From a virus: a DNA stretch of 21,750 nt. The stretch spans positions 1-21,750 of the IMG/VR virus record IMGVR_UViG_3300027797_000163; one strand, written 5' to 3'. The notes below the pieces were generated by a model. That model was not told the origin of the DNA, ran no database searches, and saw nothing but the letters and a program-made list of their open reading frames with translations. Below are positions 6,462 through 20,697 of the stretch, in pieces (within the stretch, counting starts at the first letter, position 1; every line of letters starts with the position of its first letter). A program made the position numbers and the translations under genes.

Positions 6462-6664
6462 TTCTTCTTAACTGTTTTTTTGGCAACGACTGGTGTAGGT
6501 GGTACTGGTCTTGGTGTCTCAAACATCACTGCTAGTAGTTCCTGTATCTCAGGTTCAGTAGCGACCCAACGATGCCCATTGTTGAACACAATCTCCCTAT
6601 CAATAATGTAAGTAACAGAATCAGGATTGACTAAACGACCATTAATATTGACTAGTTTATTCAT
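6458..6664 (-). CDS. Small hypothetical protein with Pro/Lys-rich tail
   Basis: Start chosen at ATG 6664 (MNKLVNINGRLVNPDSVTYI), giving 68 residues and an 8-base overlap with the preceding gene; an in-frame ATG at 6685 would overlap by 29 bases. The N-terminal 45 residues look like a compact beta domain. The tail (TPRPVPPTPVVAKKTVKKK) is proline- then lysine-rich and may bind nucleic acid or be disordered. ATGA-coupled to the membrane protein downstream. No family recognised. Confidence 0.66.
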   Translation of the reverse strand: MNKLVNINGRLVNPDSVTYIIDREIVFNNGHRWVATEPEIQELLAVMFETPRPVPPTPVVAKKTVKKK

Positions 6665-14415: not shown

Positions 14416-14895
14416 ATGTTAGAAGTTGAAAAACAATTATCTACCGAAGATGCACAGTCGCTAGACGATGGTATTGTCTTAAAGAAGCGGCGACCAAAGT
14501 TGGTTAGACGCAAAGTAGTCGATGGTAAACCTGTTCGTGGTCGTCCTTCCAACAAGGCTCTCGCCAAGAAGAAGAATCCCGGCGTGGTGGGCAGACCGCC
14601 CGGCGACGCAGCAAGGATTGCAGAGTTTAGAGCAAGGCTGTTGGCAACGCATGGCGATAGTGTGATAGAGAAGATTATCACGACTGCGCTACAGGATGGA
14701 CACCCAGCACAGGGAGCAATGCTAAAGTTCTGTGGAGAACGATTGTTACCACTCTCAGGCTTTGAAGGAAAGAACGGTGGTGGTACGCCACAGATTAGTA
14801 TTAACATCAGCGGACTCAGTTCGACAATTGAAACCTCTGAAGTGATAGACAATGATGTCACCGATGTAACCATTAAGGACATCGATGAATCTTGA
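14416..14895 (+). CDS. Terminase small subunit (probable)
   Basis: A 159-residue protein with a basic N-terminal third (KKRRPKLVRRKVVDGKPVRG at 24-43, GRPSNKALAKKKNPGVVGRP) suited to DNA binding, then a helical centre (DAARIAEFRARLLATHGDSV) with AMLKFCGERLLPLSGFEG and a C-terminal acidic tail. The central pattern recurs in phage genes that lie directly before TerL. It would recognise the packaging site and load the large subunit. It overlaps terL by 11 bases. AAAGG precedes the ATG. The name rests on position and pattern; sequence similarity among small subunits is generally weak. Confidence 0.8.
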   Translation: MLEVEKQLSTEDAQSLDDGIVLKKRRPKLVRRKVVDGKPVRGRPSNKALAKKKNPGVVGRPPGDAARIAEFRARLLATHGDSVIEKIITTALQDGHPAQGAMLKFCGERLLPLSGFEGKNGGGTPQISINISGLSSTIETSEVIDNDVTDVTIKDIDES

Positions 14896-16141
14896 CTTTA
14901 AACTACTGAAGTGGCAACAAACTGTATTTAAAGACCCTACTCGCTTTAAGGTAATTGCTGCTGGTCGTCGCTGTGGAAAGTCTAGGTTATCGGCAATAAC
15001 CCTCTTGATTGAAGGGTTAAACTGTCCTGAAGGTTCGAGTGTGATGTATGTTGCCCCAACCCTCGGTCAAGCAAGAACGATTATGTGGGACTTGTTGATG
15101 GACTTAGGGAAGCCTGTCATCAAATCTGCTCACATTAACAATTTAGAGATTAGTCTAGTTAACGGCAGGAAAATCCTCATTCGAGGCGCTGATAACCAAG
15201 ACTCATTGCGTGGTGTGTCTTTGTCGTACTTGGTAATGGACGAAGTTGCCTTTATCAAGTCAGAGATTTGGGAACGAGTATTGCGTGCTGCTCTATCGGA
15301 TAAAAAAGGTAGAGCCATGTTTATCTCTACTCCCTCTGGTCGTAATCACTTTTATGAGTGGTTTCAATTAGGACAGAGTGGTGTTGATGAAGATTGGAAG
15401 TCGTGGCACTTCACCACCGCTGACAATGAAACCATTGACCCTAAAGAGATTGAGGCTGCTAAGAGAACATTAAGTAGCTTTGCATTCGGACAAGAATACC
15501 TGTCTTCCTTCAATAATGCTGGTGCAGGATTATTTAAAGAAGAGTGGATTAAGTTTGGTGAAGAACCTGAGCTTGGGTCGTGGTACATCGCAGTAGACTT
15601 AGCTGGCTTTGAAGATGTTGCTAAGAGTGCTAGTGCTACCAAGAAAAGACTAGACCAATCCGCTATAGCGATTGTCAAAGTCACCGATGATGGTACATGG
15701 TTTGTAGAGAAGATTGAGGCTGGTCGCTGGGACATCCAGACTACCGCACTCAATATCTTAAAGAATATTAGAGAGTATGAACCTCTAGCAGTTGGTATCG
15801 AGCGAGGGGCGCTAAAGAATGCAGTATTGCCTTATCTTAGTGATTTGATGCGAAAGAACAACTGTTACGCTCATATCTTAGATTTGACGCATGGCAACAA
15901 GAAAAAAGTAGATAGGATTGTTTGGGCTTTACAGGGTCGTTTTGAGCATGGACGAGTGATACTAAATGCTGATGAAGACTTTGAAGAGTTTGTTGACCAA
16001 TTGCTAATGTTTCCAACTGCACAGGTGCATGACGACTTACCTGATGCACTAAGTTATATTGACCAACTAGCAGTAACAAGTTACAGTATTGACAATGAGT
16101 CAGATGATTGGCAAGCCCTCGACATAACGGCAGGCTACTAG
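14885..16141 (+). CDS. terL: Terminase large subunit
   Basis: The 418-residue packaging motor. The N-terminal ATPase has Walker A AAGRRCGKS (25-33, Lys32), Walker B YLVMDE (Asp119, catalytic Glu120) and the coupling motif FISTPSG (147-152). The RNase H-like nuclease domain has AVDLAG (Asp238), VGIERG (Glu306) and HDDLPDALSYI (Asp383/384, Asp387). It cuts concatemeric phage DNA and pumps it through the portal using ATP. Its length is at the short end for TerL (T7 gp19 is 586), but every motif is present. The start overlaps the small subunit gene. Confidence 0.95.
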   Translation: MNLDFKLLKWQQTVFKDPTRFKVIAAGRRCGKSRLSAITLLIEGLNCPEGSSVMYVAPTLGQARTIMWDLLMDLGKPVIKSAHINNLEISLVNGRKILIRGADNQDSLRGVSLSYLVMDEVAFIKSEIWERVLRAALSDKKGRAMFISTPSGRNHFYEWFQLGQSGVDEDWKSWHFTTADNETIDPKEIEAAKRTLSSFAFGQEYLSSFNNAGAGLFKEEWIKFGEEPELGSWYIAVDLAGFEDVAKSASATKKRLDQSAIAIVKVTDDGTWFVEKIEAGRWDIQTTALNILKNIREYEPLAVGIERGALKNAVLPYLSDLMRKNNCYAHILDLTHGNKKKVDRIVWALQGRFEHGRVILNADEDFEEFVDQLLMFPTAQVHDDLPDALSYIDQLAVTSYSIDNESDDWQALDITAGY

Positions 16142-16142
16142 T

Positions 16143-16205
16143 ATGAAAACTTGTTTTAAATGTAAGTGTACTAAAGGAAAATTATGGCTGAAAATATGGA
16201 CATGA
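16143..16205 (+). CDS. Possible 20-codon CxxC micro-ORF or gene remnant
   Basis: Between terL and the portal gene, ATG 16143 opens MKTCFKCKCTKGKLWLKIWT and stops inside the portal gene. The MKTCFKCK opening is typical of small zinc-finger or HNH proteins (family pattern MKTCxKCxxxK), so this may be the stub of a deleted gene or a real micropeptide. There is no clear ribosome binding site. Confidence 0.25.
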   Translation: MKTCFKCKCTKGKLWLKIWT

Positions 16206-18250
16206 ACGAAGGCACTAGCTGGGAAGAACCCTCTGAAGCAGACAAAGAGCTTTGTGCTTTTGTTATACAACATTGTGACCGCTGGAGAGATTCTCGTGAT
16301 GAGAACTACCTAGAATACTGGAAAGAGTACGAAAGAATCTTCCGTGGAATCTGGGCAGACGAAGACAAGACACGAGAGTCTGAGCGTAGCCGTCTAATCA
16401 GTCCAGCAACACAACAGGCAGTAGAAACCCGCCATGCTGAAATCATGGAAGCAATATTTGGTAACGGAGAGTTCTTCGACATCAAGGACGATGTGCGTGA
16501 TTACAACAACAATCCAATGGATGTTGAAGCACTCAAGATTCAGCTTAGAGAAGACCTTGAGAAACATAAGATTCGTAAGTCTGTTGACCAAGTAGAATTG
16601 ATGGCAGAGATTTATGGTACTGGTATCGGTGAGATTATCGTTAAGCAAGAGAAAGAGTTTGTTCCTGCTACGATGCCAATGCCGGGCAGTACACAAGCAG
16701 CCTATGGCGTACAAGAGAAAGAATACTTCTGCGTTAAGGTTGTTCCTGTCAATCCGAAGAACTTCCTTATTGACCCCAACGCTACCTCAATTGAGGATGC
16801 AATGGGTTGCGCTGTTGAAAAGTTTGTGTCGATTCACAAAGTGGTTGAAGGCATGGAAAAAGGTATCTATCGTAAGGTAGACATCGGACCTGCTGGCAAT
16901 GACGATGACTTAGAAGTAACTCAAGAAGTAGTTCAGTACCAAGACGATAAAGTCAAGCTCCTAACCTATTATGGTTTAGTGCCTAGAGAGTACCTAGAAC
17001 AGCTTGAGAACGAAGGTGACGAAGTTGTTGACCTCTTCCCTGAAGACAGTACTGCGGATAGCTACAGCGACCTCGTAGAAGCTATTGTCGTTATCGCTAA
17101 CGATGGACTACTCCTCAAGGCTGAGAAGAATCCCTACATGATGCAAGACCGACCTGTCATCGCCTACCAAGACGATACAGTTCCTAATCGTTTCTGGGGT
17201 CGTGGTACAGTTGAGAAAGCCTATAATATGCAAAAGGCTATCGACGCACAGCTACGCAGTCACCTAGACAGCTTGGCATTGACCACAGCACCAATGATTG
17301 CGATTGATGCGACTCGCTTACCTCGTGGTTCTAAGTTTGAAGTTAAACCCGGTAAAGCACTTCTTACCAATGGTAATCCTGCTGAGATTATGATGCCATT
17401 CAAGTTTGGTCAGACTAGCCCTGAGAACTTCGCTACCTCAAAAGAGTTCGAGCGTATGTTGCTCATGGCAACTGGAACCCTAGATAGCCAAGGAGTTGTG
17501 TCTCAGGCTTCTCGTGATGCCTCTGGTGCTGGTATGTCTATGGCAATGGCTGGTATCATCAAGAAGTACAAACGCACCTTAACGAACTTCCAAGAAGACT
17601 TCATGGTTCCGTTAATCAAGAAAGCAGCCTTCCGTTATATGCAATTTGACCCTGAGCGTTATCCTTCAGTAGATATGAAGTTTATTCCTACTGCTACTTT
17701 GGGTATTATGGCTCGTGAATACGAACAACAACAGCTCATTGGACTATTACAGACCCTTGGACCTAATACACCAGTCCTCCCAATCATCCTCAAAGGCATC
17801 ATTACCAATTCTAGCCTGTCTAATCGTGCTGAACTAGAGCAAGCATTGACCCAAATGAGTCAACCTAACCCAGAACAACAGCAAATGCAGCAAGTTCAGG
17901 CTCAACTAGCAATGCAAACCCAACAAGCACAGATTAAACAGCTTGATGCTAGTGCTGCTAAAGACATGGCAGATGCTCAGAAGACGATGGTTGAGGCACA
18001 GTTGGCTCCGAAAGAGGTGGAAGCCAAGGTTCTGAGTGCTGTTTCACGCAATTTACCAGACGACGACAATGCTGCCAATGTAGAATTTGACCGCAGAGTT
18101 AAGATTGCTGAGTTAATGCTAAAAGAAGCAGACTTAAAGAACAACACCAAGATTGTTGAGTTGCAAATGGCAGATAAAATGGCTACAATAGGGAAAGCAG
18201 AAGAAGAATTCCTAAATAACTTAACTGAGAAGCTATCAAACAATGGCTAA
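16184..18250 (+). CDS. Portal protein
   Basis: The 688-residue portal subunit; a dodecameric ring at one head vertex is the family arrangement. Family features include RDSRDENYLEYWKEYERIFRG near residue 36, SRLISPATQQAVETRHAEIM at about 71-90, VVPVNPKNFLIDPNA, and DRPVIAYQDDTVPNRFWGRG in the clip/stem region. The C-terminal 120 residues are Gln-rich and coiled-coil-like (QQQMQQVQAQLAMQTQQAQI), as in the barrel of podovirus portals. AAAGGAAAATT gives the start. It follows terL by 42 bases and overlaps the fibre gene by 8. Length fits podovirus-type portals. Confidence is high from motifs and gene order. Confidence 0.92.
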   Translation: MAENMDMNEGTSWEEPSEADKELCAFVIQHCDRWRDSRDENYLEYWKEYERIFRGIWADEDKTRESERSRLISPATQQAVETRHAEIMEAIFGNGEFFDIKDDVRDYNNNPMDVEALKIQLREDLEKHKIRKSVDQVELMAEIYGTGIGEIIVKQEKEFVPATMPMPGSTQAAYGVQEKEYFCVKVVPVNPKNFLIDPNATSIEDAMGCAVEKFVSIHKVVEGMEKGIYRKVDIGPAGNDDDLEVTQEVVQYQDDKVKLLTYYGLVPREYLEQLENEGDEVVDLFPEDSTADSYSDLVEAIVVIANDGLLLKAEKNPYMMQDRPVIAYQDDTVPNRFWGRGTVEKAYNMQKAIDAQLRSHLDSLALTTAPMIAIDATRLPRGSKFEVKPGKALLTNGNPAEIMMPFKFGQTSPENFATSKEFERMLLMATGTLDSQGVVSQASRDASGAGMSMAMAGIIKKYKRTLTNFQEDFMVPLIKKAAFRYMQFDPERYPSVDMKFIPTATLGIMAREYEQQQLIGLLQTLGPNTPVLPIILKGIITNSSLSNRAELEQALTQMSQPNPEQQQMQQVQAQLAMQTQQAQIKQLDASAAKDMADAQKTMVEAQLAPKEVEAKVLSAVSRNLPDDDNAANVEFDRRVKIAELMLKEADLKNNTKIVELQMADKMATIGKAEEEFLNNLTEKLSNNG

Positions 18251-20420
18251 CATTAAAGATTTTATTAAGAAAATCGGTAATAGTGCTGTTTCGTTAGAGG
18301 AGCAGCAACAGGCATTAGCTCAGGTAGAGAAGACCATCATCGAAGCCAAGCAAAAGCGTACCGAAGCAGTTGGTAAGAACGCTGATATGGTGATTCAGGC
18401 ACTTAAAACCATTGAAGCAAAGCTAGAGGCTAAATTAAACGAGTTAAACAACACTCCAGCTAAGCAAGGTGTCCAAGGACCTGTTGGTAAAGACGGTAAA
18501 GATGGCAAAGACGGTAAAGCTGGTCGTGATGGAATCAGCGGTAAAGACGGAACCGATGGCAAAGACGGCGTAGACGGTAAAGACGGTATCTCAGTCGTTG
18601 ACGCTAAGATTGACTTTGATGGTTCCTTAGTTGTTTACCTATCTAACGGTAGTGAAATTGATTGCGGTCAGATATTACAGCCTGAAGTAGCTAAGAATAT
18701 TATCATCAGTAGCGGTGGCTCTGGTACATCACAGGTTGTTACCGATACCTTAGTGTCTCTACAGAATCAGATTAATACTTTAACTGGTATTGATGGTATC
18801 TTAGGTGATATGGCACAGCAAAACGCCAACGCAGTAGCTATCACAGGCGGCACAATCAATGGCACTACTATTGGTGCTACTACCCCATCTACAGGTAAAT
18901 TTTCAACTTTAGAAACTACAGGAACAAGCACTTTAGGTACAAGCTCTAGCCAATTTATTCAAGCTGAAGGTGGTGCAACAGCAGTTTTATTGTCTGCCCA
19001 AGGCTCAGGAACTAACATTCCATTGGCTTTACAGCCAAAAGGAACAGGAGCAATCCAAGCACAAGCTACTACATCTACTGCTGCTGGTGGTAATGCTAGG
19101 GGTTCTAGAGCCGTTGATTGGCAATTGGAAAGAGGAACAGCTAGTCAAGTAGCTAGTGGTGCTTATTCAAATATTGGTGGTGGATTTGGAAATATTAATA
19201 ATACTTTTGCTGGTTCTCTTGGCGGTGGATATGATAATACAGCAAGCGGAAACTTTGCTTCTGTTTTAGGTGGAAGAAATAATACAGCTAGTGGAACACA
19301 AGCATTTGTTGGCGGTGGATATATAAATACTGCGGCTGGGTATTTAAATTTTATTGGCGGTGGTTTTACTAATTCAGGCACAGCATTAGCGGCAGTAACT
19401 ACTCAAAGTGGTACGATGAACGCTACTACAGCCGTTACATTGTCAGGTAGTAACGCTAACATCAAAGTCGGTCAATACATCACAGGCACTTCAATCTCTG
19501 GTGATACCTATGTAGCCGCTATAAGTGGAACAGCATTAACTTTAAGTAAAGTAGCATCAGGCTCATCTACATCAACCCTATCATTCTTTACCCCTCATGG
19601 AGTAGTAGTAGGCGGTGGTAATAACCAAGCTACAGGGGCATATAGTGCAATTCTAGGCGGAGGCGATGCTGGTACTGCGGCTAATAGGAATGTGGCTAGT
19701 GGGGATTGGAGTTTTGTTGGTGGTGGTAGAACTAACACAGCTTCAGGAAGTGGTGCGGTAGTTGCTGGTGGTGGATATTACAATGGAGTAGGTGCATCAA
19801 ATGCTGGTAATACAGCTTCAGGTGATGGTGCTTTTATTGGTGGCGGTTTTTCTAACTCAGCACAATCATTTGGTGCTAGTATTTTAGGTGGAAATAATAA
19901 TACTGCTAATGCTACTTATTCTGTTGTACTAGGTTCTCAAGCTGGAATAACAAGAGGTATTCAAGGAAATACTGTTTCCCCAGCTAGTGCAACTCCGATT
20001 GGCTCACCACAAGGCTCTGCACAATCAGCTTTACTTGTATTGGGTGTTCAAACTACAGACGCTACAGCAACAGTACTACGCTCAAATACATCAGCCGCAG
20101 GTACAAACAATCAAGTAATCCTACCTAATAACTCTGCTTACTTCTTTACTGGAGAAGTAGTATCAGGAGTTACTGGCGGTGGTAACACGAAAGGTTTTAC
20201 TATCGAGGGTGTAATTAAGCGTGGTGCTAATGCCGCATCTACAGCTTTAGTTGGTACTCCTACAGTAACTTCTACTTATGCTGATGCTGGTGCATCGACA
20301 TGGGCTATCGCAGTAACAGCCGACACGACTAATGGTGGTTTAAGAGTAACCTTTACAGGGCAAGCTAGTACGACAATTAGAACAGTAGCACAAATTCGTA
20401 CAACAGAAATGACTTACTAA
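18243..20420 (+). CDS. Trimeric fibre: coiled coil, collagen-like stalk, YadA-like beta-roll
   Basis: A 725-residue structural fibre. Residues 14-70 are a charged coiled coil; 76-115 carry 13 Gly-X-Y triplets (mostly GKD), a collagen-like stalk; 155-300 are Ser/Thr/Gly-rich linker; about 302-380 and 453-568 hold repeats of the form GGGxxNxAxGxxAxVxGG, resembling the left-handed beta-roll of YadA-type adhesin heads; 600-725 is a beta-rich tip. Residues 380-453 are a distinct inserted domain (NIKVGQYITGTSISG...). All elements trimerise in known proteins. Position directly after the portal would fit a head fibre or a receptor-binding tail fibre; which one cannot be told. Start overlaps the portal by 8 bases. 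Confidence 0.85.
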   Translation: MANIKDFIKKIGNSAVSLEEQQQALAQVEKTIIEAKQKRTEAVGKNADMVIQALKTIEAKLEAKLNELNNTPAKQGVQGPVGKDGKDGKDGKAGRDGISGKDGTDGKDGVDGKDGISVVDAKIDFDGSLVVYLSNGSEIDCGQILQPEVAKNIIISSGGSGTSQVVTDTLVSLQNQINTLTGIDGILGDMAQQNANAVAITGGTINGTTIGATTPSTGKFSTLETTGTSTLGTSSSQFIQAEGGATAVLLSAQGSGTNIPLALQPKGTGAIQAQATTSTAAGGNARGSRAVDWQLERGTASQVASGAYSNIGGGFGNINNTFAGSLGGGYDNTASGNFASVLGGRNNTASGTQAFVGGGYINTAAGYLNFIGGGFTNSGTALAAVTTQSGTMNATTAVTLSGSNANIKVGQYITGTSISGDTYVAAISGTALTLSKVASGSSTSTLSFFTPHGVVVGGGNNQATGAYSAILGGGDAGTAANRNVASGDWSFVGGGRTNTASGSGAVVAGGGYYNGVGASNAGNTASGDGAFIGGGFSNSAQSFGASILGGNNNTANATYSVVLGSQAGITRGIQGNTVSPASATPIGSPQGSAQSALLVLGVQTTDATATVLRSNTSAAGTNNQVILPNNSAYFFTGEVVSGVTGGGNTKGFTIEGVIKRGANAASTALVGTPTVTSTYADAGASTWAIAVTADTTNGGLRVTFTGQASTTIRTVAQIRTTEMTY

Positions 20421-20430
20421 GGAGATTTAC

Positions 20431-20697
20431 ATGGCACTACGATTACCCGTTCAAACCCAATTTGGCGTACCAGCCCCCCAAGCCTACGCTAGAATCACTA
20501 ACTTCTTTGGTACTAAAGACCAAATCCAAGTCCAAGTGGCTATTCATTATGACGAGTCAGCACGACATGGCAACATGGCTACAGTCAAAGAAAACGCACA
20601 CTACATTAATATGGAAGATTTAAAGGGTGACTTAATCCCAGCCATTTATGAGGTTCTAAAGACCTATAGCGATTATGCTGATGCTGAGGACTGCTAG
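20431..20697 (+). CDS. Conserved small phage protein following the fibre, 88 aa
   Basis: An 88-residue protein starting MALRLPVQTQFGVPAPQAYA with a strong AAGGAG upstream. Segments TNFFGTKDQIQVQVAIHYDE and LKGDLIPAIYEVLKTYSDYA resemble a small structural-cluster protein commonly placed beside fibre genes (recollection). Mixed alpha/beta; possibly a fibre-associated or chaperone protein, unproved. Its stop lies in the stem of the terminator at 20690. Confidence 0.78.
   Translation: MALRLPVQTQFGVPAPQAYARITNFFGTKDQIQVQVAIHYDESARHGNMATVKENAHYINMEDLKGDLIPAIYEVLKTYSDYADAEDC

What the first reader, a model, noticed from the sequence alone, without database searches (positions are those of the whole stretch)
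19146..19946. YadA-like beta-roll array split by an inserted domain in a collagen-bearing phage fibre
The fibre joins a coiled coil, a 13-triplet collagen-like stalk and beta-roll repeats typical of bacterial trimeric adhesin heads. Residues 380-453 (19380-19601) interrupt the repeats with a different VGQYITG-type domain and different base composition. This modular make-up is a likely hotspot for host-range change.
Basis: partly seen in the sequence, partly recalled or inferred. Interest (0 to 1): 0.5.

Follow-up and report, generated by a model that had tools for sequence, protein, structure and literature searches.

The report
Recombining beta-roll phage fibre head
This phage gene encodes a fibre whose bacterial-adhesin-like rod is split by a small plug-in domain, and comparison with over a hundred relatives suggests that the plug-in and the repeats just after it stay constant and act as a joint at which pieces of the fibre head are swapped.

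Summary
The 725-residue fibre (18243-20420) has a helical N-terminus, 14 collagen triplets, a 15-residue-period beta-roll (UspA1/BoaA type), a roughly 70-residue non-repeat insert (380-449), more beta-roll and a tip whose predicted fold resembles T4 gp9. The insert is not part of the roll; folded alone it is a small beta-barrel of a kind also found inside phage adaptor and other virion proteins.

The interpretation needs correcting. The insert is not the changeable part: 117 of 118 distinct relatives have it at the same site, about as conserved as the tip. The two coils after it (450-495) are the most conserved and the other coils are hypervariable. 700 of 6555 gene pairs share a near-identical DNA block, mostly the insert's end plus the constant coils, against 0 in eight codon-permutation controls. 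Long shared blocks often break there (9 of 20 edges). The cassette sits on many N-terminal types, with tip and N-terminus nearly uncorrelated, and is followed by one 88-residue partner gene; some relatives carry an HNH endonuclease gene between the two.

Best reading: a mobile head cassette, presumably receptor-binding, that shuffles through conserved internal joints. Host, receptor and position on the virion are unknown. New variant of a known kind.

The parts
16184..18250 (+). Portal protein gene (SU10/P22 type) directly upstream; overlaps the fibre start by 8 bases
   Evidence: Pfam SU10_portal E 7.6e-23; PHROG portal E 4.2e-46
18243..18467 (+). Fibre residues 1-75: N-terminal anchor, probably helical/coiled coil
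   Evidence: sequence; only sub-threshold coiled-coil-type Pfam matches; coiled coil not computed
18468..18593 (+). Fibre residues 76-117: 14 collagen-like Gly-X-Y triplets
   Evidence: Pfam Collagen E 2.6e-7; count; DNA repeat family D1
18594..19097 (+). Fibre residues 118-285: linker region; relatives with the same anchor differ from here on
19098..19379 (+). Fibre residues 286-379: first beta-roll array (variable)
19380..19589 (+).
19590..19727 (+). Fibre residues 450-495: constant coils, the most conserved block and main zone of near-identical DNA blocks shared between relatives
19728..19937 (+). Fibre residues 496-565: second beta-roll array (variable)
19938..20027 (+). Fibre residues 566-595: variable link to the tip
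20028..20420 (+). Fibre residues 596-725 and stop: C-terminal beta-sandwich tip, fold like the C-terminal domain of T4 gp9
   Evidence: 1qex Z 10.9, rmsd 2.6, 109 aligned
20431..20697 (+). 88-residue partner gene (PHROG 18037, function unknown) that travels with the head cassette

Best explanation
A trimeric phage fibre (trimer inferred) whose C-terminal ~440 residues plus the following 88-residue gene form a mobile head cassette. A left-handed beta-roll rod carries one looped-out beta-barrel (the insert), continues through conserved coils and variable coils, and ends in a gp9-like tip. The outward positions of the variable coils are the likely contact surface. The insert's end, the constant coils and the start of the tip are conserved and act as joints for homologous recombination, so that arrays and tips are reassorted among phages and among unlike N-terminal anchors. 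Shown here: architecture, conservation pattern, DNA-level mosaicism, anchor swapping, linkage with the partner gene. Inferred: trimer, receptor binding, that the insert is a lateral decoration, and that selection for recombination plays any part.
For: Fold: UspA1 3pr7 profile E 9.3e-18; BoaA 3s6l Z 14.2, rmsd 2.4, 116 aligned; AtaA 3wp8 Z 13.3, rmsd 1.9, 112 aligned; tip to T4 gp9 1qex Z 10.9. Insert in 117 of 118 distinct relatives; in the set found with the tip alone, 90 of 94 tip-bearing ORFs have it, 3 are cut off upstream and 1 lacks it. Median pN/pS ratio: rolls 0.62 and 0.69, insert 0.27, constant coils 0.19, tip 0.25. 700 of 6555 representative pairs share a block scoring 100 or more; left edge in the insert 569, right edge in the constant coils 574; 0 of 6555 in each of 8 synonymous-codon permutations. 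All 13 blocks of 350 nt or more: 9 of 20 internal edges fall in residues 438-480, about 10% of the length. L208 is near-identical to L038 over 288-446 and to L174 over 461-636. Window and L163 share 129 identical bases at residues 447-490 and are about half to two-thirds identical in the rolls. Nearest-tip neighbour shares the N-terminal type in 21 of 106, 17.1 expected. L227: portal 96% and anchor 94% identical to the window's, head replaced. Partner gene behind a tip in 72 of 76 loci found with the partner alone; in the other 4 behind an HNH fragment ending in TTEMTY.
Against: Only the best 80 of 208-395 relatives per scan were kept. Inferred edges in conserved DNA partly reflect where homology exists. 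The 13 long blocks involve 19 fibres and are not independent. Most pairs are saturated at synonymous sites in the constant coils too (median pS 0.56). Low distance correlations that involve the rolls are uninformative, since the rolls do not correlate even with themselves (odd/even codons 0.07 and 0.21). No host, receptor or virion location is known; the full-model insert has pLDDT 37-63.
Confidence: 0.66

Rival explanations
1. The insert itself is the receptor-binding element, like the protruding loop of the CbpF beta-roll, and the rolls are only a rod.
For: CbpF precedent: a loop emerging from the beta-roll binds CEACAM1 (PMC13432900, passages seen). The insert holds one loop that varies in sequence and length (between GTSI and TYVAA).
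Against: Insert median pN 0.17 against 0.37-0.43 in the variable rolls; nearest-neighbour identity 0.94 against 0.63 and 0.62; the same kind of domain sits in adaptor and other virion proteins, where host specificity is less expected.
Confidence: 0.2
2. Roll hypervariability is made by a diversity-generating retroelement or other targeted mutation, not by recombination plus ordinary selection.
For: Variable positions are confined to a few per coil; rolls use AT-ending codons.
Against: No reverse transcriptase (PF00078) in the window at E up to 1, with the control genomes ringing in 4 of 14; no template repeat: direct repeats of 28 nt or more are the collagen array and the roll coils, plus one 63% match at 6500; array lengths also change. 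The record is probably a fragment, so a retroelement elsewhere is not excluded.
Confidence: 0.05
3. Ordinary old divergence: rolls evolve fast under weak constraint, the insert and tip slowly, and no special exchange takes place.
For: Rolls carry a simple repeat with few fixed positions; most module pairs are saturated.
Against: Near-identical blocks beside 0.56-0.75 identical flanks in the 40 pairs listed, absent after codon permutation; unlike heads on near-identical anchors.
Confidence: 0.1

Closest known systems
UspA1 / YadA-type heads of trimeric autotransporter adhesins (3pr7, 3s6l, 3wp8, 9gh5)
   Same: left-handed parallel beta-roll with 14-16-residue coils; sequence match to UspA1 E 9.3e-18, fold Z 12.8-16.5 (the 3pr7 row has rmsd 16.4 over 198 residues because the two rolls fit separately)
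   Different: phage gene beside a portal gene; collagen stalk; no YadA membrane-anchor match among the Pfam hits up to E 1; inserted beta-barrel; gp9-like tip
CbpF of Fusobacterium nucleatum (beta-roll with protruding loop; PMC13432900, passages)
   Same: a beta-roll decorated by something looped out of one turn
   Different: there a short receptor-binding loop, here a ~70-residue conserved domain that recurs in other virion proteins
T4 gp9 C-terminal domain (1qex)
   Same: predicted fold of residues 596-725, Z 10.9, rmsd 2.6, 109 aligned
   Different: 8% identity; gp9 connects long tail fibres, here the domain ends the fibre
Phage plug-in beta-barrels: Bridgette 8eci chain 1 (recalled as a capsid decoration protein), LKA1 gp49 residues 280-372, insertions in SU10-type adaptors
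   Same: insert fold: 8eci Z 9.3, rmsd 2.2, 70 aligned, 27% identity; LKA1 Z 7.6. Adaptor insertion: profile A2 to A3 probability 97.2, E 3.5e-11; the SU10_adaptor model runs through the domain, residues 17-287 to positions 1-183
   Different: here it sits inside a beta-roll coil and is fixed across the family
Pelagimyophage structural proteins with collagen and YadA domains (PMC7029224, passages)
   Same: collagen repeats and YadA domains reported in putative receptor-binding structural proteins
   Different: no inserted beta-barrel or cassette described in the passages seen

Membership tests
Trimeric autotransporter adhesin (type Vc) | left-handed beta-roll head | tested here: met
Trimeric autotransporter adhesin (type Vc) | C-terminal membrane-anchor barrel (Pfam YadA_anchor, name recalled) | tested here: not met
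   not among the Pfam hits up to E 1; C-terminus is a gp9-like sandwich; gene lies in a phage head-module order
Pfam UspA1_rep / YadA_head / LbR_Ice_bind | curated model match | tested here: inconclusive
   none for the window head; among 90 relatives LbR_Ice_bind 23, UspA1_rep 11, YadA_head 2 at E up to 0.1
Collagen-like phage fibre | Gly-X-Y run matching Pfam Collagen over its cut-off | tested here: met
   30.7 bits against 27.2
T4 gp9 family | sequence homology to gp9 | tested here: inconclusive
   fold match only, 8% identity; no gp9 row in the PDB sequence searches
Recurring phage plug-in beta-barrel (as in PHROG 5838, 10467) | profile match of the insert | tested here: met
   PHROG 5838 E 2.3e-5 and 10467 E 2.8e-5 for the window insert alone; 35 and 34 of 48 members of A4; hhalign A2-A3
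Ig-like decoration domains of phages | immunoglobulin sandwich | tested here: inconclusive
   model is six-stranded and its best rows are beta-barrels; an absent row excludes nothing
Diversity-generating retroelement target | reverse transcriptase and template repeat nearby | tested here: not met
   within the 21750 bases held

The most novel reading that the evidence does not exclude
The insert/constant-coil block is kept as a DNA-level joint, a conserved recombination handle inside a receptor-binding gene. It lets uncultivated phages reassort two hypervariable arrays, a tip and a partner gene onto unlike anchors, and an HNH endonuclease lodged at the tip's end helps spread the distal half by homing.
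Probability: 0.22. Interest if true: 0.72.

Novelty: new variant of a known kind. Interest (0 to 1): 0.5.

Why it matters
Mosaic tail fibres are familiar, but joints are usually inferred at domain borders. Here the joints can be placed to within tens of residues inside a repeat rod, in a family with hundreds of members in uncultivated viruses. If the arrays set specificity, host-receptor changes in these viruses could be read from metagenomes. The linked 88-residue gene and the tip-end HNH gene give two direct, testable leads on fibre assembly and cassette spread.

Tried and rejected
Searches that found nothing or little: NCBIfam and PHROGs for the whole fibre; cultured phages (INPHARED) with the whole fibre and with the insert at E up to 1; the tip gave one weak match, Cyanophage Cy-LDV1 putative tail fibre, 35.7%, E 5e-3; the 88-residue gene none and none in PDB sequences. 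Insert profile against PDB sequences: only an antibody chain at E 0.19. Genome contigs: 1 relative from 129 stretches, L380, an 8-kb contig in a Saccharibacteria-labelled bin that carries phage-type genes; this is not taken as evidence of a host. Paper searches listed no paper that from its listing describes this cassette; only passages of two papers were seen.

Rejected: 'foreign' insert (its composition is nearer to the phage average than that of the rolls). Rejected: an AlphaFold low score in the insert means disorder (alone, with a wider alignment, mean pLDDT 84.5). Low distance correlations involving the rolls were not used as evidence. My first wording 'the insert is the most conserved part' was corrected: the constant coils are, and insert and tip are alike.

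Limits: every viral scan kept the best 80 of 208-395 relatives; in the first look, 12 N-terminal clusters include 4 singletons, one of them L212 with an uncertain start. Fold runs were single-chain; no trimer could be predicted. A1 was given 90 of 114 non-redundant cassettes; A2 32 of 118 inserts; A3 16 of 24 loci. L212 was dropped from the distance statistics and L081 (the window itself) from the locus tables. In one search the stored gap was that of the last row; one search shows that the five large values belong to loci with a nearer tip, so direct neighbours are 59, not 54.

Full report
What is there. The window is a virus record of 21750 bases. The fibre gene follows terminase (14885-16141) and portal (16184-18250) and overlaps the portal's end; downstream lie an 88-residue gene and further small genes. 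In relatives the same order goes on to a 275-residue and a 320-residue gene that by their look are scaffold and major capsid genes (names by eye, not tested). So the gene sits in a head-type module, and a head fibre is as possible as a tail fibre.

Check of the observation. Repeat period, insert boundaries and collagen run are as described, with 14 rather than 13 triplets. The model of residues 286-725 made with 90 relatives has confident rolls and a poorly resolved insert. The second roll matches BoaA (Z 14.2, rmsd 2.4, 116 aligned), AtaA (Z 13.3) and CbpF (Z 12.8), and the tip matches T4 gp9 (Z 10.9). By sequence the rolls are closest to UspA1. The insert alone, with 48 sequences, gives mean pLDDT 84.5 and six strands; best PDB row 8eci chain 1, Z 9.3, 70 aligned, then LKA1 tailspike Z 7.6. 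In the viral fold library 15 matches have E up to 0.001, among them structural proteins and a tail collar protein.

The insert as a recurring part. Its profile matches a domain family that interrupts SU10-type adaptor proteins: in L381 the SU10_adaptor model runs from residue 17 to 287 across the domain at 86-159. It also lies in L394, a head-closure-type protein (PHROG 578, E 1.8e-39), and a related sequence matched 59 cultured phage records, 58 of them named as cyanophage, Synechococcus or Prochlorococcus phages. In L380 a second domain of this look is nested in the insert and another in the tip (by eye).

Constancy and change. From four scans 119 distinct complete cassettes including the window were assembled; 117 of 118 relatives have the insert, L212 lacks it. 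Because two of these queries held the insert, the tip-only query is the fairer count: 90 of 94, with 3 cut off and 1 without. Median pairwise pN: first roll 0.37, insert 0.17, constant coils 0.11, second roll 0.43, link 0.40, tip 0.16; pS 0.56-0.65 throughout. Array lengths peak at 94 and 109 residues before the insert and at 113, 128 and 143 after 450, with other lengths between, for example 106 in 11, which fits gain and loss of whole coils. In 182 and 91 regular coils the most variable places are the two after GG and the two after the second fixed G, often aromatic (the fixed G and N are fixed by the search pattern).

Exchange. After removing sequences above 95% identity 115 remain. 700 of 6555 pairs share a near-identical DNA block; 569 left edges lie in the insert and 574 right edges in the constant coils. 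Permuting synonymous codons within columns gives 0 of 6555 in each of eight runs, and none of the 13 blocks of 350 nt or more; this control removes relatedness as well, so the divergent flanks (0.56-0.75 in the 40 pairs listed) are what speaks for exchange. Of 20 internal edges of the long blocks 9 lie at 438-480 and 4 at 605-613. L208 joins an L038-like first half to an L174-like second half. The window shares 129 identical bases with L163 in this zone. Distance correlations agree for the modules that can be tested: within insert 0.62, constant coils 0.62 and tip 0.87, between them 0.18-0.23.

Anchors. 106 full-length fibres fall in 12 N-terminal clusters (26, 23, 18, 16, 9, 4, 3, 3 and four singletons); the nearest tip neighbour shares the cluster in 21 of 106, 17.1 expected. 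Conversely L227 keeps the window's anchor (94%) and portal (96%) with another head, and L226, 99% identical in portal, already differs after the anchor.

Partner gene. It follows the cassette in 86 of 115 cassettes with room, window included; of the other 29, 14 have a second fibre next, 13 an HNH gene, one a cut-off HNH-like start (L186) and one neither (L206). In loci found with the partner alone, 72 of 76 with at least 150 nt upstream have a tip upstream, 59 directly and 13 at 632-699 nt, and the remaining 4 have HNH fragments ending in TTEMTY. Of the same-anchor phages with other heads, five (L230, L231, L232, L235, L239) can be read through to the next conserved genes and none has it. Its function is unknown; a chaperone or tip partner is the obvious guess.

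Mechanism. Most likely a trimeric fibre whose rod coils present variable outward residues, with the insert as a constant lateral decoration and the conserved blocks as joints where homologous recombination can act. Whether the joints are selected for this, or are conserved for structure and only happen to permit it, cannot be told.

Literature. PMC13432900 (passages) describes the CbpF loop; PMC7029224 (passages) reports collagen and YadA domains in pelagimyophage structural proteins. Nothing listed by the seven paper searches describes this cassette.

Noticed in passing
L173, L079, L188, L133, L204, L145, L139, L108, L163, L149, L172, L237, L143 (directly after the fibre stop): An HNH endonuclease gene (L188: Pfam HNH_2 E 7.8e-5; PHROG HNH E 3.3e-19) follows the fibre in 13 of 115 cassettes. 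In 7 of the 12 complete ones its own last residues repeat the fibre's end (TTEMTY/F), as if it had entered just before the fibre's last codons.
   Followed up: partly
L380:799-3693: The insert of this distant relative seems to contain a nested second domain of the same look, and the tip another (by eye).
   Followed up: no
window 19098-20027 and 113 relatives: Variable rolls use far fewer G/C-ending codons than insert and tip for the same amino acids (Asn 0.29/0.25 against 0.64/0.62); insert above first roll in 104 of 113. Unexplained.
   Followed up: partly
L193, L215, L183, L179, L096, L223, L126, L167, L192, L051, L155, L023, L142, L141: A second fibre gene with another N-terminus follows the first in 14 of 115 cassettes.
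   Followed up: no
L212:3233 ORF: The only complete roll-plus-tip ORF without the insert; its N-terminal part is odd and the start uncertain.
   Followed up: no
L227, L230, L232, L239: Replaced heads come with their own different small downstream gene (62-66 aa) overlapping the fibre's end.
   Followed up: partly
window 18243-20697: The fibre lies between portal and (in relatives) scaffold- and capsid-like genes, so it may be a head fibre rather than a tail fibre.
   Followed up: no
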